Below are positions 56,469 to 64,000 of a stretch of DNA of 64,000 nucleotides, one piece after another. The position numbers and the translations under genes were made by a program. This DNA is from an uncultured Bradyrhizobium sp. (GTDB taxonomy: Bacteria; Pseudomonadota; Alphaproteobacteria; Rhizobiales; Xanthobacteraceae): contig NZ_CANSMR010000002.1 of NCBI RefSeq assembly GCF_947648125.1, positions 558,001 to 622,000 on the forward strand, in the 5' to 3' direction. Numbering within the stretch: the stretch's first letter is position 1; each line of letters begins with the position of its first letter. The notes below the pieces were generated by a model. The model did not search any database. It was not told the DNA's origin and worked only from the letters and a program-made list of their open reading frames with translations.

Positions 56469-57090
56469 GTCACGTTGCAGGCCATCCGGGACGCGCCGCC
56501 TCCACGGAGAAATTCTCAATCACTGATTTGCCCGACGGCGCAAGCCCTTGCAACAAAGATATTTCGCTTTATCAGAATTGCAACTCAGTGTATGGTTCGC
56601 CCGTCTCACCTGATCGAGGGGCGCTTCGCGGTCGTCACGAACGTGGGTCGAGATGCGGTGGACGCCGAGTGTGCAACTGACGAGTGCGCATGAGGCGGAC
56701 GGTCAAGTCGTGTGGACTTGCTGTCCAGCGCTTTTTTCAGCCTGCTGAAAATGAAAGAAACCCCTGTGACACAGGGGTTTTTCGAATTTGTCCGGAGCGG
56801 CATGGGTCCGCCTGAAAAGTGCCGGGACCTGTATAGGCCCTGAAAATCACCGTGCCGCTCGCTGCCGGGCCGAGACGCTCGCCTGACTGATCAAGTTTTG
56901 TTTCTGACGCCGCACTATAAATTTTTTGTTTATCGAGAGCGGCACGACAATCATTGGCGTTTTCATTTTAGCTACGACAGCCAGTCGTATTTTGCGCGCT
57001 CCTACCTCATAAAAAATTACGCCTGCGTTCGTTTTGTGCCGTTGTGCGGCGGGGCCATAGTCTCTCGCGTTGACGCAGGGAGACGCCACA
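56469..57090. other. 622-base noncoding left boundary of the mobile element, with a hairpin terminator
   Basis: No gene is seen. A hairpin at 56758-56780 has AAACCCCTGTG and CACAGGGGTTT as exact complements followed by TTTTT, a strong rho-independent terminator on the + strand. Another hairpin TTTTCAGC-CT-GCTGAAAA lies at 56734-56751. Together they could end a short noncoding RNA or a transcript from the 55-residue gene. From about 56900 the DNA becomes AT-rich up to the AlpA-like gene. No tRNA, integrase or obvious direct repeat was found here. Confidence 0.5.
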
Positions 57091-57378
57091 ATGAGCGCAC
57101 GAGAGGACGGCGGTTCGATCGAACTTCTCCAGATGATCACACAGGACGAAGTGCTCCAGCGCATCCCGATCTCGCGGAAGTCGCTGGATCGGATGGAAAA
57201 TCGCGGGCGCTTCCCGAGGGGCCGGTACGTGACCCCGAACCGCAAGGCGTACATTCTGGCCGAGGTCGTGAAGTGGCAGGCCGCCGTTGACGAATACGAC
57301 CCGCACCGTGGCCGTGGCCGTCACAAGCCCAAGCCCAAGGCTGACGCGCCGGCAGCGGCTGCGGCAGAGGAATGCTGA
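57091..57378 (+). CDS. AlpA-like excisionase/transcriptional regulator
   Basis: 95 residues from ATG 57091, preceded by AGGGAGACG. The pattern MITQDEVLQRIPISRKSLDRMENRGRFPRGRYVTPNRKAYILAEVVKWQAA is that of the AlpA/MerR-like helix-turn-helix used by satellites and prophages to activate excision or early genes. The tail is Lys/Pro/Ala-rich and likely flexible. First gene of the rightward block, 194 bases before the next convincing start, which includes a short coding-like stretch (57372 onward) that is frameshifted. Confidence 0.85.
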   Translation: MSAREDGGSIELLQMITQDEVLQRIPISRKSLDRMENRGRFPRGRYVTPNRKAYILAEVVKWQAAVDEYDPHRGRGRHKPKPKADAPAAAAAEEC

Positions 57379-57571
57379 CGCCTGAAGAGCTGGAGCGCCG
57401 TCACGGAAGGGGGCCGAGGCGACGCTCCTGCAGATGACCGACCCGGACCGGCAAGGTTTCTAGGTCGGAGAGCCCGAGCGAAGGGCTGACCCCTGACACG
57501 GAGGTCGAGGTCGCCGTCCTTCTAGCACGCTCGGCGATCCGGTCCAAGGCGGCACGGAGGGACACCGAGCG

Positions 57572-57634
57572 ATGACCGACATCACCACGTCAAACTCCCT
57601 CACCGATCTCGCCACGCGCGAGGCCGCGCCATGA
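57572..57634 (+). CDS. 20-residue leader peptide overlapping the RepA-like gene
   Basis: MTDITTSNSLTDLATREAAP and stop, with GGAGG ten bases before its ATG. Its stop TGA overlaps the ATG of the next gene (ATGA), the usual form of translational coupling. The following gene has no ribosome binding site of its own, so this peptide probably drives its translation. No function beyond that is claimed. Confidence 0.4.
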   Translation: MTDITTSNSLTDLATREAAP

Positions 57635-59028
57635 CCGACCCGTTCGATGGCCGGGACGAGAGCGAGGTCGAGATACCGGCCGGCAAGGACGCTGCGCCGG
57701 ACTTCACCGTCAACTTGAAATATCTGGACGAAGACAATGAACTGATCGTCCCCGGCGACACGGAAAACCTCCATGTCTGCCGTGATGGCGACAGGTTGAT
57801 GATCAGGCGCGAGCCGCACCCGCCGCGCGGCGGCCCTAGCCCGGCTGCTTCACCGAAAGGTCTCGGCGAGTGGAACGCCGGTCTCGACACCGGCAAGCCA
57901 CCGCCGCGCGGCTGGCTGCTCGGCAACAGCTTCTGCCGCAAGTTCATCAGCTCGTTGATCGCCGATGGTGGCGTCGGCAAGACCGCGCTGCGCATCGCGC
58001 AGGCGCTGGCGCTTGCGACCGGGCGCGCGCTCACTGGCGAGCATGTCTTCCAGCGCTCTCGCGTGCTGCTCGTCTCTCTTGAGGACGATGCCGAAGAGCT
58101 GAAGCGCCGGGTTCTCGCCGCGCGCTTGCATTTCAACATCGAGGCTTCCGAGCTGGACGGTTGGCTATTCCTCGCCTGTCCGGGCGCGGCAGGCGGCAAG
58201 TTGAAGTCCATGAACGCCAAGGGCCAGATTGTCGATGGCCAGCTCAAGGCCAATCTTGAAGCGGCGGTCAAGGCGCACAGCATCGATCTCGTCAGCCTCG
58301 ACCCCTTCGTGAAGAGCCACGGCGTCGCTGAGAACGATAACAATGCCCTCGACGAGGTCGCGCAGCTCTTGAGCGATCTCGCCGCCGAGCGCGACATCGC
58401 GATCGATGTTCCGCACCATGTTTCCAAGGGCGCGCCGGAGCCGGGCAACGCGCAGCGCGGGCGCGGCGCATCCGCGCTCGTTGATGCGGGGCGGCTTTGC
58501 TACACGTTGACGCCGATGTCGGAGGAGGAGGCGAAGAGCTTCGGCATTCCCGACGAAGAGCGGCGGCAGTACGTGCGGCTCGACAAGGCCAAGGTCAATC
58601 TCGTCCGGGCCGGTGGTCCGGCGCGATGGTTCAGGCTGTTCGGCGTGAGCCTCCACAACGCGACCGATCTCTATCCGCAGGGCGACGAGGTACAGGCGAT
58701 CGAGCCGTGGAAGCCGAAGAGCCCATGGGCCGACCTCGATGAGAAATCCCTCAACAGCATCCTGAACAGGATCAGCGCCGGCCTTGGCGACGGCAACTTC
58801 TACACGGCAAGGCCGAACGCCGGCCGCCGGGCCGTGGTGCCGCTGGTCCGCAGGTTGACCGTGAGCAAGACCGAAGAACAGGCCCGCCAGATCGTCCGGG
58901 CGTGGCTCAAAAACGGCGTGCTGGTCGAGTTCGAGTACCACAATCCGGAGACCCGGAAGCCCGCAATGGGGCTCCGTGTCGAGTTCAGCAAGAGACCGGG
59001 AGAAACCGCGCCACTGGAAAAAATCTAG
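57631..59028 (+). CDS. RepA-like AAA family ATPase (DNA helicase/replication)
   Basis: 465 residues. Hexameric RecA/RepA-like ATPase: Walker A ADGGVGKTAL (113-120), Walker B IDLVSLDPF (Asp224 with a following Pro), then HHVSKG (262-) as a sensor, GRGASALVDAGR and a C-terminal region of winged-helix type (SVSKTEEQARQIVRAWLKNG). Such proteins unwind DNA or load the replisome in phage satellites and plasmids. A row of repeats of GTGRCGC begins at its stop codon. Its start is coupled to the leader peptide upstream. Confidence 0.85.
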   Translation: MTDPFDGRDESEVEIPAGKDAAPDFTVNLKYLDEDNELIVPGDTENLHVCRDGDRLMIRREPHPPRGGPSPAASPKGLGEWNAGLDTGKPPPRGWLLGNSFCRKFISSLIADGGVGKTALRIAQALALATGRALTGEHVFQRSRVLLVSLEDDAEELKRRVLAARLHFNIEASELDGWLFLACPGAAGGKLKSMNAKGQIVDGQLKANLEAAVKAHSIDLVSLDPFVKSHGVAENDNNALDEVAQLLSDLAAERDIAIDVPHHVSKGAPEPGNAQRGRGASALVDAGRLCYTLTPMSEEEAKSFGIPDEERRQYVRLDKAKVNLVRAGGPARWFRLFGVSLHNATDLYPQGDEVQAIEPWKPKSPWADLDEKSLNSILNRISAGLGDGNFYTARPNAGRRAVVPLVRRLTVSKTEEQARQIVRAWLKNGVLVEFEYHNPETRKPAMGLRVEFSKRPGETAPLEKI

Positions 59029-59131
59029 TGGCGCACAGTGACGCAACCGGGTCTGCGCCACCACTACCGGTGCGTTAGTAGAAAGTAGTGGCGCACTCGC
59101 GCGCGCCACTGACTTTCTTTAAGTGACGCAC
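59008..59131. repeat. Iteron-like cluster of GTGRCGC repeats after the RepA-like gene
   Basis: AGTGGCGCAC at 59027-59036 and 59087-59096, AGTGACGCAA at 59037-59046, AGTGACGCAC at 59122-59131. The reverse complement GCGCCACT occurs at 59008-59015, GCGCCAC at 59055-59061 and GCGCCACT at 59103-59110. Two make exact 8-base hairpins, 59008-59015 with 59027-59034 and 59087-59094 with 59103-59110. Such clusters beside a RepA gene are typical of replication origins or their control elements. A role as transcript end is the alternative. Confidence 0.65.
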
Positions 59132-59181
59132 CGATGGCGCAGTGGATGCGCACACAAGTTGTTGTGCAAAGGAGGAAAGAG

Positions 59182-59808
59182 ATGAAACCGTTTCATTCGT
59201 CGGAGGAAATGTTGGATGCACACGAACTAATGTTTGGCGAGGCCGGGCGGCGTTGCGCGGAGATCATCCTGAAATGGGCGACGACGTTGTTCGCGGTCCC
59301 GCTCGACGTGCTCAACATCCGGGTCGTGCTCGCGCCGGTCGAGCTTGGCCCTTACAATCGGCATACGGGTTATCACTATGGCAGTGAGGGGTCTGGCACC
59401 TTTATCCTCGGTAACCGGCATATCGTGAAGCTCAGTAGCGGCACGCTCGTTTTGACCGAGCAATCTGATGAGTTTCTGATCGGGTTTGAAGACTTCATCG
59501 TGCATGAGCTTACCCACGCCCGTCAGGCGTGTTTGGAGCGCCAGCATGGGTGGAAGAGAACGCGCGGCGCGCATCGTGATCAGGGTTGGTACGCCGCCGT
59601 TGCCGAGGCCTGCCCGCGCTATCTCGGTGTCGAGCTTCCTCGGTCATCGTGGCCGAAGGGGCCGCGCACGCCTGAAAGCACACTAACTGAAGTGCAGATG
59701 TGCCACTGGCCAATGTCGCTACGGCTGCTTGCCACGAGCGACGATCCGCGCCTGCCGAAGGTCGGTAACACACCTACTGTTGTGCATGATCGGCTTGAGG
59801 TTTGCTGA
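59182..59808 (+). CDS. SprT-like zinc metalloprotease-type protein
   Basis: 208 residues from ATG 59182, with AGGAGG upstream; the longer frame from 59134 overlaps the repeat cluster and lacks a ribosome binding site. Contains HELTHARQACLER (HExxH, about residues 115-120) with a downstream His (GAHRDQGW) and Glu that could complete a gluzincin or SprT site. Not recognised as a named family. Lies between the repeat cluster and the small genes of the capsid block. It could process capsid or other phage proteins, but nothing here shows that. Confidence 0.65.
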   Translation: MKPFHSSEEMLDAHELMFGEAGRRCAEIILKWATTLFAVPLDVLNIRVVLAPVELGPYNRHTGYHYGSEGSGTFILGNRHIVKLSSGTLVLTEQSDEFLIGFEDFIVHELTHARQACLERQHGWKRTRGAHRDQGWYAAVAEACPRYLGVELPRSSWPKGPRTPESTLTEVQMCHWPMSLRLLATSDDPRLPKVGNTPTVVHDRLEVC

Positions 59809-60071
59809 TGCTCCGCCGCTCACCATCGCGTTCGTCTGCCGCCGAGAAAGAGCGGCAGCGGCAGCGCGAGGGCAAACGTGAAGCGCAGCGGCGCTGGCGC
59901 AAGAACGTCGAGGATGGCAAGCGGTGCGCCTCGACGCCCATCAGCGCGCTGATCCTGTGCTGGCTCGATCGCCGTTATCCGGGCCGATGTAATCTCGACG
60001 ACCTCGGCGATGTAGGCCGGTTGATCGGCGACATCCTCGAAGCGAGCGCGCGTGCCGATACCGATCAGTGA
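59808..60071 (+). CDS. Small basic protein of the mobile element
   Basis: 87 residues from ATG 59808 (TGATG overlap with the previous gene). Strongly basic N-terminal half: SRSSAAEKERQRQREGKREA, QRRWRKNVEDGKR, then a hydrophobic-acidic C-terminal half LILCWLDRRYPGRCNLDDLG. Could be a nucleic-acid binding protein. No family recognised; coding is supported by the overlap. Confidence 0.55.
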   Translation: MLRRSPSRSSAAEKERQRQREGKREAQRRWRKNVEDGKRCASTPISALILCWLDRRYPGRCNLDDLGDVGRLIGDILEASARADTDQ

Positions 60072-60157
60072 TCCGAAAATTTTCGCGTCCCGATGTAGAT
60101 CGATCTACGTCGTCCGCCTCCGGACTGTGCCATTGTCGCCGGCAGGAGGTGCGGCCC

Positions 60158-61228
60158 ATGAACCTCGATCGATCCCCTATCACTCCGTTGAGGCCCGACC
60201 GTGGCGAGGCCATCCGAGCCGAGGGTCGGGCATGGTCTCGTGCCATCGCCGCGCAGGCGCTGTCGTCGCCGCAGCGGAGTGCCGAGAAAATATTGCGCGC
60301 CAATTGGCCACACGACAGCCGCGCCGCCACGAAATTGAAATCGGCGGTGTCGCCGACCTCGACCACCAACAGCGGCCTGCCGCCTCACGATCTGGTCGAA
60401 GCGTTTCGCAGCTTGGCACCAGCATCAGCGGCGTGGAAATTGTTTGCCCACGACGCCGCGCTCAAGCTCGACCTGACCGGCGTCCATAGCATCAACATCC
60501 CGCACGTCGCGAACTTCCCGCCGCAGCCGGTTTTCGTCGGTGAAGGCAGCGCCGGTCCTGTCGCGCAATGGTCGCTGATGAAGTCGGCGGTTGGTCCGGC
60601 GCGAAAAATATTGGTGATCTCGTGCGTCAGTGAGGAGTTGGAAGCCGCCTCGCCGCAATCGGTCAGCGGCGTGATTGCTCGCGTGCTCGCGGACAGCTCC
60701 AACAAGAGCATCGACGCGACTGCGTTCGATGCCAATCCCGACGACGGCATCAGGCCAGCGGGATTGTTGTTCGGCGTGACGCCGACGCCTGCCGCTGCAG
60801 CCGGCGCGTTCGTGGCCGAAACGATTGCCGCTGACGTGTCCAATCTGGTCGGCGCGATTGCCGCCAACGGCATCGATCCGAGCGACACCGTGTTCATCGC
60901 TGGCGCGCGGGAAGCGTCGCTGATGCAGACCCTCGCAGGCGTCGATGCGATCATGTCCCTGGCTGTACCGCCTAAAACCGTGATCGCCTGCGCGCCTGCA
61001 GGCATCGCCAGCGGTTTTGAAGGCGGACCCGAGATCGACACCAGCAAGGAAGCCGTGGTGCATCGCGAGGGTGCGAGCCCCGGTGAGATCGTGAGCACGC
61101 CGGGCGTCTCGGCCTCGCCGAGCACATCGCTGTTTCAGAGCGGCCTGATCGCCGTCCGGGTTCGGGCGAATGCAGCATGGGCCGCCGCACCGGGTGCGGT
61201 GCAGGTCGTTTCAGGCGTCAATTGGTAG
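60158..61228 (+). CDS. HK97-fold phage major capsid-like protein
   Basis: 356 residues from ATG 60158 (AGGAGGT upstream). After an N-terminal part of about 75 residues it shows the capsid pattern: INIPHVANFPPQPVFVGEGS, then KSAVGPARKILVISCVSEEL, FDANPDDGIRPAGLLFG, DPSDTVFIAGAREASLM, MSLAVPPKTVIACAP and the C-terminal AVRVRANAAWAAAPGAVQVV. These correspond to the E-loop, spine helix and A-domain strand order of HK97 capsids. No protease or scaffold is adjacent. The fold is recognised by pattern only. Confidence 0.75.
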   Translation: MNLDRSPITPLRPDRGEAIRAEGRAWSRAIAAQALSSPQRSAEKILRANWPHDSRAATKLKSAVSPTSTTNSGLPPHDLVEAFRSLAPASAAWKLFAHDAALKLDLTGVHSINIPHVANFPPQPVFVGEGSAGPVAQWSLMKSAVGPARKILVISCVSEELEAASPQSVSGVIARVLADSSNKSIDATAFDANPDDGIRPAGLLFGVTPTPAAAAGAFVAETIAADVSNLVGAIAANGIDPSDTVFIAGAREASLMQTLAGVDAIMSLAVPPKTVIACAPAGIASGFEGGPEIDTSKEAVVHREGASPGEIVSTPGVSASPSTSLFQSGLIAVRVRANAAWAAAPGAVQVVSGVNW

Positions 61229-61235
61229 GTGAGCC

Positions 61236-61748
61236 ATGAGCAGCTACAGCGACGAACAGGCGCGGCGCTGCATCGACGAAGCGCGCAGGACCATCTCCCG
61301 CGTCGATGCGATGACGCCGCATCAGGTCGAGAGCGAGAGCGGAGCGGAAGATGATGGAATCATCCGCAGGGAGATCGATCTGTCCGAGCCGCGCGTCGTT
61401 TCTAGAATGCAAGGCGTCCACGATCGCCATATCCGCCAGATCACCGAACGCGACGAACAATGGGCGCGTCAAGCCGAGCTGGCGCGAGCGAGGCAGGAGC
61501 GCGACAAGCAAGAGCGCGCCGAGGCCGCCGCCAGCGCCGATGCCGTGCAGCGCATCGCCGCGCTGGAGGCTCGCCTCGCCGGCCTCGAACACGACGCCGA
61601 GACGTGGCGGGACGTCGTCCGCGCGTTGGCTGATGGCACCGAACGCATCGACGAGCGTTTGCGCGAGCTGCGATCCGAGATCGGAGCCGATCGCAAGGCG
61701 GTGCTCGATCTGCCGGCGGTGTTGCCATCGTCGAGACTAGTGCAATGA
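61236..61748 (+). CDS. Coiled-coil protein of the mobile element
   Basis: 170 residues, ATG 61236 eight bases after the capsid-like stop, with GGTGAG upstream. Residues 60-155 are almost entirely charged helix (ITERDEQWARQAELARARQE, AALEARLAGLEHDAETWRDV), predicted coiled coil. It could be a scaffold or a structural component by position right after the capsid gene; no sequence motif proves this. Overlaps the next gene by 4 bases (ATGA). Confidence 0.55.
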   Translation: MSSYSDEQARRCIDEARRTISRVDAMTPHQVESESGAEDDGIIRREIDLSEPRVVSRMQGVHDRHIRQITERDEQWARQAELARARQERDKQERAEAAASADAVQRIAALEARLAGLEHDAETWRDVVRALADGTERIDERLRELRSEIGADRKAVLDLPAVLPSSRLVQ

Positions 61749-61957
61749 TCAGCGCCAATCAGATCGCCAACACGGTGCGCGACATCCGCATCGAGGCGCG
61801 ACTGGTCGCGCTGCGCTGGCTCGCGCGAGACACCGCGCTGGCCTATGACCGGTTGGTCCGGCATGGCGTGCCGCCAGCCCTCGCGCACGACTATTTCGCC
61901 GTCGAGATGCTGCGGCAAAGGTTGGACGAGGAGCGCGATCGGGAGATCGATCTCTGA
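61745..61957 (+). CDS. Small helical protein of the mobile element
   Basis: 70 residues, MISANQIANTVRDIRIEARL and on to LRQRLDEERDREIDL. Alpha-helical, charged, no motif recognised. Overlaps the preceding and following genes (ATGA and TGATG), so it belongs to the same translational unit. Confidence 0.55.
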   Translation: MISANQIANTVRDIRIEARLVALRWLARDTALAYDRLVRHGVPPALAHDYFAVEMLRQRLDEERDREIDL

Positions 61958-62196
61958 TGTTATACAGCGTGCGCAACGTGGTGTGGGTCGGCGATAGGCT
62001 GAAGATGGCCGGCAACGCCGAGCCAAAGGGTCTTGTGATCGAGCTTGTCCCAGAGCCCGCATCGCCGGGCCAGCGCAGGCTCTACAGCGTGCGAACGCCT
62101 GATGGCTTGATGTCACCGCCGATGCTTCGGCCACGCGCCCGTTGGCGCGCGGAGCAAGTGCTGCTCGACATCGCCAACGCACCGGAAGTGTTTTGA
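61957..62196 (+). CDS. Small protein of the mobile element, unknown function
   Basis: 79 residues, MLYSVRNVVWVGDRLKMAGN, later RRLYSVRTPDGLMSPPMLRP. Mostly beta-strand-like, with the short motif LYSVR twice. No family recognised. It overlaps the previous gene at TGATG and is followed by 122 noncoding bases with GGGAGGA at about 62235. Confidence 0.55.
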   Translation: MLYSVRNVVWVGDRLKMAGNAEPKGLVIELVPEPASPGQRRLYSVRTPDGLMSPPMLRPRARWRAEQVLLDIANAPEVF

Positions 62197-62318
62197 TGAG
62201 GGCCGGGGGGACTGTTATTCGGATAAGCCGAAGGGAGGAATCGAGCGGCTGCACGCTTTTGTTAGCGTCCAAATATTCGGTTTTGGGTAAAGCGCGCGAT
62301 CAGCAGTAAGATCAGCTC

Positions 62319-62696
62319 ATGACAGCCCAAAAACCCATCCCGATCGCCGCTTGTCGGCCCGGAACCACCCCGGAACCGCCGGAGACCTTGGGCGTCACCG
62401 GCTCGAAGTTGTGGCGCGACGTGCTGGAGGAATGGACGCTCGACGATGCCGCCGGCTTGGCCGTGCTGGAGCAGGCCGCGCAGGCCTACGACCGCGCCGA
62501 GAGCCTGCGTCGGCAGATTCAGATCACCGGAGAGGTGGTCGAGACCGGCAATGGCGGGATGAAGGCCAACCCGCTGATCATGTGCGAGATCGCCGCCCGG
62601 AGCCTCGTGGCGCGCCTACTGGGTCGGCTCGGCGTGCTCGACCGTGAGGACAAGCGCGGTCCAGGCCGGCCGCCCGGAAAGGGCAATCCATGGTAA
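62319..62696 (+). CDS. P27-type phage terminase small subunit
   Basis: 125 residues: AACRPGTTPEPPETLGVTGS, KLWRDVLEEWTLDDAAGLAV, LEQAAQAYDRAESLRRQIQI, TGEVVETGNGGMKANPLIMC, EIAARSLVARLLGRLGVLDR and the Arg/Gly tail. The GGMKANPLI and RLLGRLGV segments are the P27 hallmark. Small terminase recognises the pac/cos end and brings the large subunit. No large subunit follows; the next gene is a short unknown and the following two run the other way. Confidence 0.85.
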   Translation: MTAQKPIPIAACRPGTTPEPPETLGVTGSKLWRDVLEEWTLDDAAGLAVLEQAAQAYDRAESLRRQIQITGEVVETGNGGMKANPLIMCEIAARSLVARLLGRLGVLDREDKRGPGRPPGKGNPW

Positions 62697-62980
62697 CGGC
62701 CACGCCCCGGACTCGAATTTCGCCGGCTGCACTCGCGCTGTTCGCCGAGCTTGAGCACACACAGCATGATCGACCCTTCGACGACAAAGCGCGGGAGCTG
62801 ATGCGCCTGCTCGGCCTGACTGCGGAATGGTGGAGTGGCTGCTCAGTGCTCGACCGGAGCGACGGTCCCGTACACAGCTCGCCGAACTACTGCGAGTATC
62901 ACGATTGGCATCGCTGCCGGGCGGCGCGCAACGAGCTGCTGGCCGCGCTGGAGGCGCGGGGCAAGCCTCGAACCGCCTAA
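62690..62980 (+). CDS. Hypothetical protein of the mobile element, with Cys/His cluster
   Basis: 96 residues, overlaps the P27 gene by 7 bases (AAAGGGC upstream). The central part GCSVLDRSDGPVHSSPNYCE, YHDWHRCRAARNELLA has three Cys and several His that could bind zinc. No family recognised. Its end overlaps the next gene on the opposite strand by 4 bases. Confidence 0.55.
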   Translation: MVTATPRTRISPAALALFAELEHTQHDRPFDDKARELMRLLGLTAEWWSGCSVLDRSDGPVHSSPNYCEYHDWHRCRAARNELLAALEARGKPRTA

Positions 62981-63468
62981 GACTGTCTAAAACCGCGCCC
63001 CACCCAAAGTAAACTATACCCCAAGATGAACAGCAGGATGCACGGCAGGAACGCCCAAGCCGCTATCACGCCAGCAGCATATCCCCAGCGTCTCCACCGC
63101 TGATCCCAAAATTGTTGTGCGATGTAGTTCTTGTCCGCTTCGTTGTACTGATCATGCATGTAAAGGCGGCTGCCGTCAGGCATGTCGACCACGGCCATTG
63201 AGCCGTCCTTGTCCCATTCGCTTCGGTCTCTCCATTCAACCTCACGAAATTGCAAGCTTAGCTTCTCGGCGGACGGTGAGCGCATCGTTTCATAAAAGGG
63301 CTTCTTAAGGTCGAACGGGTCCACGAAGCCTTTTGTTGCTCCAATCGGTTGGAATGCGCCACGTACTGTGTCCGGCGTAGCTATCGTATAGGCGACGAAA
63401 CCCGCACCCATGATCCAGAGAAGCGAGATCAAGACCCAAGCGCGAAACAGCCCCCTGCTGATGTTCAT
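62977..63468 (-). CDS. Two-TM membrane protein, unknown function
   Basis: 163 residues from ATG 63468 with GAGGATTTC upstream. N-terminal membrane segment AWVLISLLWIMGAGFVAYTIA, a 90-residue extracytoplasmic polar part (YETMRSPSAEKLSLQFREVE), and a second membrane segment GVIAAWAFLPCILLFILGYS near the C-terminus. Clearly lower G+C than the rightward genes, opposite strand; perhaps a passenger or defence gene of the element. No family recognised. Confidence 0.65.
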   Translation of the reverse strand: MNISRGLFRAWVLISLLWIMGAGFVAYTIATPDTVRGAFQPIGATKGFVDPFDLKKPFYETMRSPSAEKLSLQFREVEWRDRSEWDKDGSMAVVDMPDGSRLYMHDQYNEADKNYIAQQFWDQRWRRWGYAAGVIAAWAFLPCILLFILGYSLLWVGRGFRQS

Positions 63469-63486
63469 TTTGAAATCCTCTCGGCT

Positions 63487-64000
63487 CTAAGTATCAAGCA
63501 TATCCCACTCGTCGCCGAGCACCCACCTAAGCGCTGACAGCTTCCCGTTGATCATGCCCCACTCGAAATCATCCCAAGGCCCCAATTCGCCGGGGCCGTA
63601 CTGCTCCTCCTTCCTTCTAGCCGAGTGCTCGGCCATCTCCCAAATGGACCGATTTGTCGTCAATCCAAAGGGGTCCTTGCCTCGTTCCTCGTGGTCCTCG
63701 ATCAGCACCGCTTCGCCGCTCTGAAGTTTTTCGTTCCAGACCTGATGCCGGTTGTACCAGACCTGATCAATTAATTTTTCGATCGCTTCCGTTATCTCGA
63801 CGAATCGGCGCGGAGGAAAGTCGATCGTGTGCTCGACCATGATGTCCCGAAATTCGACGGGACGGTATGTGTTGAGAGCATTCCCCAGCTTGGTAAAATA
63901 TCGCGATCTGCTCTTGGGAAAGAACTTGGCGATGTCCGGATGCGGCTCCTGTTCGTTGACGCCGACGTTGCTGAAGTCCTTGATGTTGTGGCTCACGAAC
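63487..64000 (-). CDS. PIN-like (DUF4935-type) protein, partial: C-terminal part
   Basis: The frame stays open to the end of the window, so the N-terminus is missing (a GTG at 63996 is not believed to be the start). The visible C-terminal 171 residues begin FVSHNIKDFSNVGVNEQEP, HPDIAKFFPKS, which fits the last acidic strand of a PIN-like nuclease domain of the DUF4935 group; the rest is a charged helical region. Low G+C and leftward like its neighbour, from which it is separated by 18 bases. PIN domains are metal-dependent ribonucleases; toxin or defence function is possible. Confidence 0.5.
   Translation of the reverse strand, partial: FVSHNIKDFSNVGVNEQEPHPDIAKFFPKSRSRYFTKLGNALNTYRPVEFRDIMVEHTIDFPPRRFVEITEAIEKLIDQVWYNRHQVWNEKLQSGEAVLIEDHEERGKDPFGLTTNRSIWEMAEHSARRKEEQYGPGELGPWDDFEWGMINGKLSALRWVLGDEWDMLDT

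What the first reader, a model, noticed from the sequence alone, without database searches (positions are those of the whole stretch)
56900..64000. Satellite-like element: AlpA, RepA-like ATPase, capsid and P27 small terminase without other phage structural genes
Seen: AlpA-like regulator, RepA-like ATPase with a repeat cluster, HExxH protein, HK97-fold capsid-like protein, four small overlapping genes, P27 small terminase, then two leftward AT-richer genes. Capsid lies before the small terminase, the reverse of HK97-type prophages. No large terminase, portal, protease, head-tail, tail, lysis or integrase gene is in the window. Established: capsid-forming phage-inducible islands and other satellites carry AlpA, Rep and their own capsid or terminase genes. 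Inference: this is a related or new class of satellite.
Basis: partly seen in the sequence, partly recalled or inferred. Interest (0 to 1): 0.75.

Follow-up and report, generated by a model that had tools for sequence, protein, structure and literature searches.

The report
Bradyrhizobium phage satellite with own capsid
A 10.8-kb element in a Bradyrhizobium chromosome looks like a parasite of bacterial viruses: it carries its own coat-protein copy and packaging adaptor but no other virus-particle genes that could be recognised, and appears to belong to a family of satellites that would steal virus particles to spread.

Summary
The element runs beyond the window: 10,821 bp, window 56706 to 67536 counted on past the window end. 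It is bounded by a 10-bp direct repeat; a near relative (G004) holds the uninterrupted site with one copy. To the right lie a PIN-domain gene, a membrane protein, a small protein and a tyrosine integrase, then chromosome. The capsid-like gene is an HK97-fold coat protein without a protease domain; the small terminase is P27-like. No large terminase, portal, protease or tail gene was recognised. Related loci occur in other Bradyrhizobium and Hyphomicrobiales genomes; several carry defence genes (PD-T7-4, AbiV, OLD/Gabija-like). The anatomy fits phage-inducible chromosomal islands with a capsid homologue (PmCI172, EcCICFT073; compare Ccm of SaPIbov5). Best reading: it excises, replicates, diverts helper capsid assembly and is packaged with the helper's large terminase and tail. 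Mobilisation is untested and no helper is known. New points: a satellite-type capsid clade apart from the long, protease-type capsids of local prophages; prophages with a second capsid nested in that clade; integration into a multi-copy dispersed repeat.

The parts
56706..56715 (+). attL core AGTCGTGTGG (left end of element); the partner attR core lies outside the window at L003:3527-3536 (= 67527-67536 counted on from the window)
   Evidence: Empty site in G004 (L083) aligns to the left flank up to 56715 and to the right flank from 67527, sharing exactly these 10 bp; the core occurs only at these two places in the 84 kb of window plus L003
57070..57378 (+). AlpA/Xis-like DNA-binding regulator
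   Evidence: phrog_2790 1.8e-9, phrog_66 2.4e-8; Pfam AlpA below cut-off
57631..59028 (+). Rep-like AAA ATPase (RepA/DnaB-like), putative satellite replication protein
   Evidence: AAA_25 3.1e-32, phrog_25693 9.5e-61
59134..59808 (+). HExxH-motif protein, unknown; no partner among the loci clustered
   Evidence: no family match; no cluster partner
59808..60071 (+). C4: small basic protein directly upstream of the capsid gene
   Evidence: profile hit 4.2e-8; C4 profile hits 13 of 21 satellite-type loci (4 training rows included) and 0 of 10 phage-type loci; no NCBIfam match
60158..61228 (+). stand-alone HK97-fold capsid protein homologue, 356 aa, with short N-terminal helical region and no protease domain
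61236..61748 (+). protein after the capsid, putative scaffold or capsid partner; coiled-coil character judged from the sequence and weak Pfam hits, not computed
   Evidence: two subgroups with profile hits in 7 and 4 of 21 satellite-type loci; subgroups align only over residues 1-31, hhalign probability 73%, E 3e-5
61745..61957 (+). C10: small protein, 70 aa
   Evidence: profile hits in 8 of 21 satellite-type loci, training rows included
61957..62196 (+). small open frame, 79 aa, unknown
   Evidence: open frame; weak coding score
62319..62696 (+). P27-like terminase small subunit
   Evidence: PF05119 1.7e-6, phrog_83 6.6e-10, TIGR01558 5.1e-5, below cut-off
62690..62980 (+). 96-aa open frame overlapping the TerS end, unknown
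   Evidence: open frame; no family match
62977..63468 (-). putative membrane protein, 163 aa, cargo region
   Evidence: open frame; two hydrophobic stretches, 19-residue hydropathy up to 2.5; no family match
63487..64000 (-). C-terminal part of a 347-aa PIN-domain protein that runs to 64530 beyond the window; possible defence or toxin cargo
   Evidence: PIN_12 7.3e-24 on L134:7490-8530; no PADLOC match

Best explanation
It is a phage satellite of the phage-inducible chromosomal island type (10,821 bp). Shown: a discrete element integrated at a 10-bp core, with integrase, AlpA/Xis-like, Rep-like, capsid homologue, TerS and cargo genes, and without recognisable genes for the rest of a phage. Inferred: a helper phage triggers AlpA-dependent excision; the Rep protein copies the element; the capsid homologue, perhaps with the protein encoded after it and C4, joins the helper's coat protein during assembly and biases it to small shells that fit about 11 kb (the way Ccm pentamers of SaPIbov5 act); TerS brings the helper's large terminase to satellite DNA; the helper supplies portal, protease, large terminase, tail and lysis. 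The PIN and membrane genes between TerS and integrase are probably anti-phage or host-benefit cargo. Likelihood: satellite about 0.88; Ccm-like co-assembly as the capsid's role about 0.5. The confidence below is for the satellite reading with the capsid's exact role left open.
For: Empty site and att repeats. Integrase at the far end, PF00589 1.2e-14. No match to portal PF04860 or TerL PF03354/PF20441 in the own genome. The gene set recurs: own-built profiles for TerL and portal hit 0 of 21 satellite-type loci, while integrase hits 18, AlpA/Xis 14, C4 13, TerS 12, the post-capsid protein 11, Rep 7 of 21 (training rows included). Capsids of 17 satellite-type loci plus the second capsids of four prophages form one clade, 95/95, apart from seven long prophage capsids, 99/97. 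Of five relatives whose cargo genes were scanned with PADLOC, three have defence-type matches: PD-T7-4 in L050 (4.1e-76), OLD/Gabija-like ATPases in L044 and L056; L019 and L046 have none; L047 has AbiV by Pfam (1.1e-26). Model: N-terminal helices 15-63, low-confidence stretch 64-77, then the HK97 core, which could be a delta domain that a helper protease removes. Precedents: Ccm is a coat-protein homologue that takes the pentamers and cannot form shells alone (PMC8569155, parts of Results and Discussion); PmCI172 makes small capsids and carries a capsid homologue (PMC6092414 passages).
Against: No evidence of induction, excision, packaging or transfer. The own genome has no recognisable HK97-type helper, so none is named. 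In EcCICFT073, deleting the capsid homologue did not abolish transfer or interference (PMC6092414 passages), so such a gene need not redirect size. AlpA is weak by Pfam. TerS was found in only 12 and Rep in only 7 of 21 related loci. The satellite-type set was chosen by short capsid frame and context: L124 looked alike by capsid length but has a portal and was moved to the phages, so short capsid frames also occur in phages (L124; L149, 461-aa frame, with TerL and portal). The TerS profile is not satellite-specific: it also hits phage-type L150 and L142. Some related loci are near contig ends (L045, L047), so genes beyond cannot be excluded.
Confidence: 0.78

Rival explanations
1. A satellite whose capsid protein builds the whole small shell by itself, with the protein encoded after it as scaffold, and borrows portal, protease, large terminase and tail from the helper. 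(Shares the satellite part with the best explanation; the odds are not exclusive.)
For: The capsid is followed by a protein with a conserved N-terminal helix and is in a clade apart from the long prophage capsids; capsid-forming PICIs make own shells (PMC10690885, PMC11389934 passages).
Against: No portal, protease or large terminase recognised in the element; the shell would have to fit the helper's portal; the nearest precedent, Ccm, cannot form shells alone (PMC8569155).
Confidence: 0.28
2. A decayed prophage that happens to retain integrase, regulator, Rep, capsid and TerS.
For: Isolated phage genes without a full particle set; the own genome has no match to the phage families searched.
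Against: A similar gene set, again without TerL or portal, in related loci of other genomes; the capsid belongs to a clade apart from the long prophage capsids; precise att ends.
Confidence: 0.06
3. An integrative genomic island that uses phage genes only as passenger or defence genes (for example the capsid homologue as a poison of phage assembly) and is not packaged.
For: Defence genes in the cargo slot of some relatives; no proof of packaging.
Against: TerS, Rep and an AlpA-type regulator next to a capsid homologue are the published satellite set (PMC6092414 passages); IMG/VR contig L141 carries integrase, Rep, capsid and TerS, L144 and L145 carry C4, capsid and a weak TerS match, though a place in a viral collection does not prove a virion.
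Confidence: 0.12
4. The HK97-fold protein is an encapsulin-type compartment protein, not a phage capsid.
Against: Best fold match is HK97 prohead I, 13.9; sequence families and PDB profile hits are phage capsids; lies beside TerS in an element with an integrase.
Confidence: 0.02

Closest known systems
Gram-negative PICIs PmCI172 (Pasteurella) and EcCICFT073 (E. coli)
   Same: Integrase, AlpA, replication gene, capsid homologue, in some PICIs a TerS, no full structural or lytic set (PMC6092414 and PMC6893505, passages read)
   Different: Those of the 2018 paper were all in Gammaproteobacteria; here Bradyrhizobium and other Hyphomicrobiales, a P27-like TerS after the capsid, C4 and another protein around the capsid, 10.8 kb rather than about 15 kb, att site in a dispersed repeat. 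Sequence relatedness to those PICIs was not tested
SaPIbov5 and its capsid homologue Ccm
   Same: A satellite-encoded coat-protein homologue without protease, with an N-terminal region before the HK97 core (PMC8569155, parts read)
   Different: Different host and (by recall) different regulation genes; Ccm works on a prolate helper; no structural or functional proof here
Capsid-forming PICIs (cf-PICI) and Mulch/Flayer satellites
   Different: They encode head and packaging sets with portal and large terminase; in this element none of these was recognised

Membership tests
PICI (Gram-negative type) | integrase at one end of a discrete element with att repeats | tested here: met
   PF00589; 10-bp repeats and empty site in G004
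PICI (Gram-negative type) | AlpA-type (or MerR) regulator | tested here: met
   phrog_2790 1.8e-9; Pfam AlpA 0.0057, below cut-off
PICI (Gram-negative type) | own primase/replication module | tested here: met
   Rep-like AAA_25 3.1e-32; no primase domain here, one in relative L022
PICI (Gram-negative type) | no lytic and no tail genes; TerS and capsid homologue in some | tested here: met
   none recognised in open frames and family scans of the element; small frames of unknown kind remain
PICI (Gram-negative type) | att site not used by prophages | not tested
   att lies in a dispersed repeat; prophage att sites were not surveyed
PICI (Gram-negative type) | induced and packaged by, and interfering with, a helper phage | not testable with these tools
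   needs culture and phage
PICI (Gram-negative type) | sequence descent from known PICIs | not tested
   E. coli and Pasteurella PICI proteins were not compared
Capsid-forming PICI | portal, protease, large and small terminase, connectors with the capsid | tested here: not met
   no PF04860, PF03354 or PF20441 match in the own genome; TerS and capsid only
Ordinary HK97-type prophage | TerL, portal, protease, tail and lysis genes | tested here: not met
   not recognised in element and right flank
HK97-fold capsid proteins | sequence and fold match | tested here: met
Ccm-type size-redirecting capsid homologue | occupies pentamers in helper shell and shifts size | not testable with these tools
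   needs particles and cryo-EM; Ccm not among the 50 rows shown, which decides nothing

The most novel reading that the evidence does not exclude
A satellite-specific capsid lineage exists in Hyphomicrobiales that co-assembles with the long, protease-type coat protein of helper phages as a pentamer (vertex) protein, and some Bradyrhizobium phages have captured this satellite capsid as a second coat gene next to their own, perhaps to resist or to use size redirection. Capsid genes would then flow from parasite back to host phage.
Probability: 0.3. Interest if true: 0.75.

Novelty: new variant of a known kind. Interest (0 to 1): 0.55.

Why it matters
From the papers seen, satellites have been worked out mainly in Enterobacteria, Vibrio and Gram-positive cocci. 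Here a group of capsid-carrying, satellite-like elements is visible in nitrogen-fixing Bradyrhizobium and other Hyphomicrobiales, some with defence genes as cargo. Its recurring C4-capsid-TerS module would make the open question of what capsid homologues do in Gram-negative satellites testable in a non-pathogen. The prophages with a second, satellite-type capsid offer a natural experiment on capsid size control and on gene flow between phage and satellite.

Tried and rejected
Looked for att by matching short words between flanks alone: no convincing repeat (longest 15 bp, not at the ends); the empty-site comparison found it. Tested circular contigs as a sign of excised forms: L045 and L047 have no exact terminal overlap of 15-399 bp. 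Tested whether the dispersed att repeat is a known RNA: no credible Rfam match. Phage GenBank collection by tblastn with the capsid: no match. IMG/VR with the window's own capsid group: none of 26 stretches confirmed; with the sister group 5 of 86 confirmed, of which L141 has integrase, Rep and TerS, L144 and L145 have C4 and a weak TerS match (0.0033), and L142 and L143 have TerL and portal. L124 was first labelled a satellite and relabelled phage after the portal search; the tree carries the old label, another the new one. The clade tests were chosen after the tree was seen. Rep 'repeat cluster' as an iteron origin: not supported. Encapsulin reading rejected. A Foldseek search of the PDB or of viral models was not obtained. 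An earlier count gave TerS as 13 of 21; the recount gives 12. Literature: the searches were made; two were swamped by taxonomy papers and say little. Most listed papers were seen as listings only. PMC12949522 (passages) says that recent findings suggest integrons and phage satellites are widespread in plant microbiomes, without describing such elements in Bradyrhizobium in the passages seen; PMC12946183 and PMC8628069 (passages) describe none. The NAR 2023 satellite survey is not held; a passage of PMC10690885 cites that survey for satellites being widespread across Pseudomonadota, so Alphaproteobacterial ones may be listed there.
Full report
Where it is. The window is G000:C2:558001-622000 in an 8.57-Mb genome of 71 contigs. 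The 40 kb to the right were fetched. Positions past 64000 below are counted on from the window (L003 position + 64000).

Limits of the element. Blast of the region against G004 shows the left flank matching up to 56715 and the right flank from 67527, on touching stretches of one uninterrupted site; the two share the 10 bp AGTCGTGTGG, present once in G004's site. The other three relatives fetched (G010, G461, G447) show no match to the element at this place either, though their sites differ more. The core occurs at exactly these two places in the 84 kb of window plus L003. The element is 10,821 bp, GC 0.626 against 0.641 in the flanks.

Content. From left: AlpA-like gene, Rep-like AAA ATPase, HExxH protein, C4, capsid homologue, a coiled-coil-like protein, three small frames around the P27-like TerS, then on the other strand a membrane protein and a PIN-domain protein (63487-64530, PIN_12 7.3e-24), a membrane protein forward, a small protein and the tyrosine integrase (65954-67342, PF00589 1.2e-14), then chromosome with a thiolase. 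In the circular form integrase and AlpA would lie on both sides of attP, divergent. No gene for large terminase, portal, protease, tail or lysis was recognised. The own genome has no match to PF05065, PF03354, PF04860 or PF20441; each model covers one family, and PF05065 also misses the present capsid at that threshold, so a helper of another type is not excluded.

Relatives. The capsid protein matched in 8 of 60 genomes and in 17 of 391 genomes of the family; a profile matched in 19 of 397 genomes of the order. The own genome is counted in each, and the counts mix satellites and prophages. I fetched stretches for part of these matches and studied 21 satellite-type loci (the window included) and 10 phage-type loci. 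The sorting was by capsid frame and context: L124, with a stand-alone-length frame, was first taken as a satellite and moved to the phages when a portal was found beside it. Profiles built here from members gave, in satellite-type loci: integrase 18, AlpA/Xis 14, C4 13, TerS 12, post-capsid protein 11 (two subgroups, 7 and 4), C10 8, Rep 7, C11 6, TerL 0, portal 0 of 21; in phage-type loci: portal 10, TerL 8, integrase 1, Rep 1 (both L124), the others 0 of 10. Training members are included, so the positive numbers are partly by construction; the zeros for TerL and portal in the satellite-type loci are the informative ones, with the L124 choice in mind. In later loci the TerS profile also hit phage-type L150 and L142 and the Rep profile hit phage-type L148, so neither gene is confined to satellites. 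Pfam searches of 23 genomes place a portal near such a capsid only in G017, G386, G390 and G793, and PF20441 TerL near it only in G017, G386 and G390. Some loci end at contig ends (L045, L047).

Capsid tree. With 35 capsids, 17 satellite-type capsids and 4 second capsids of prophages form one clade (95/95); seven long prophage capsids (638-783-aa frames; the protease half was confirmed by family search only for L021) form another (99/97), among them the long capsids of those same four prophages. Four further stand-alone capsids (L125-L128) belong elsewhere, with L131, L132 and L124. The prophage second capsids lie inside the satellite clade (92/91 and 93/92 at the two forks): a satellite clade without them is rejected (AU p 0.007), and so is a joint clade with the phages' own long capsids (p 0.00012). 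These tests were set after seeing the tree, two long branches are present, and the root is not inferred, so the direction of transfer is inference. Among six Bradyrhizobium prophages of this capsid type looked at, five carry both genes (L021, L023 and L147, all from G017; L053; L054) and one (L146, G019) only the long one; in eight prophage loci outside the genus (L057, L129-L132 by gene-call search; L148-L150 by profile) no second capsid was seen.

Integration site. attR begins a stretch of a dispersed repeat; the empty-site sequence has 21 matches in the own genome at E below 0.001, from short pieces to full length, the two halves beside the element included. Of six other copies checked, five keep the exact 10-bp core. 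Satellites L056, L047 and L044 show the same core or close variants on both sides, and L046 the left side of the repeat; the other loci searched gave no such match on both sides. So at least this group of satellites uses a multi-copy site, which would give several possible landing places per genome.

Cargo. In relatives the cargo slot holds PD-T7-4 (L050, 4.1e-76), AbiV (L047, 1.1e-26) and OLD/Gabija-like ATPases (L044, L056); the cargo genes tested in L019 and L046 had no PADLOC match. The window's PIN, membrane and HExxH proteins have none either; a defence role for them is inference.

Comparison with the literature. Seen: passages of PMC6092414 and PMC6893505, parts of the Results and Discussion of PMC8569155, passages of PMC11389934, PMC10690885, PMC12949522, PMC12946183 and PMC8628069. 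Gram-negative PICIs carry integrase, AlpA or MerR, primase/Rep, and in two studied cases a capsid homologue; PmCI172 makes small heads; in EcCICFT073 deletion of the capsid homologue did not affect transfer by the resident prophages and did not relieve interference. Ccm of SaPIbov5 takes the pentamers of small shells, with helper protein in the hexamers. In the searches made, read mostly as listings, no description of such satellites in Bradyrhizobium or Hyphomicrobiales appeared; two of these searches were too broad to say much, the main satellite survey (NAR 2023) is not held, and two passages say satellites are widespread in Pseudomonadota and in plant microbiomes. This is no proof of absence.

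Mechanism. Shown: integrated, bounded element; gene set; related loci; lack of recognisable particle genes. Inferred: excision and replication on helper infection, capsid diversion by co-assembly, TerS-directed packaging by the helper's large terminase. I hold the satellite reading at about 0.88 and the co-assembly reading at about 0.5, with own-shell assembly as the main rival; the odds overlap and are not exclusive.

Noticed in passing
L021:10937-11995, L053:8962-10020, L054:10403-11461, L023:5125-6183, L147:7744-8895: Bradyrhizobium HK97-type prophages carry a second, stand-alone capsid gene upstream of their own long capsid gene; in the tree the four that were included (not L147) fall inside the satellite capsids.
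   Followed up: partly
L003:3527-4110 and 21 matches in G000: A dispersed repeat of several hundred bp, unknown kind, serves as the integration site of this satellite group.
   Followed up: partly
L125:6151-8466: A protein with VanY peptidase (9.3e-15) and minor-tail-protein-like (7.3e-6, below cut-off) matches lies near a stand-alone capsid in G625, so that locus may be another kind of satellite or a reduced phage.
   Followed up: no
window 59134-59808: HExxH-motif protein without any family match, between Rep and the capsid module.
   Followed up: partly
L125, L126, L127, L128: A second group of stand-alone capsids in other Hyphomicrobiales families, related to different prophage capsids, suggests that capsid homologues were taken up more than once.
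   Followed up: partly
L141, L144, L145 (IMG/VR contigs): Viral-collection contigs of 6 to 11 kb with the same kind of capsid plus TerS (weak in L144 and L145) and, in L141, integrase and Rep.
   Followed up: partly
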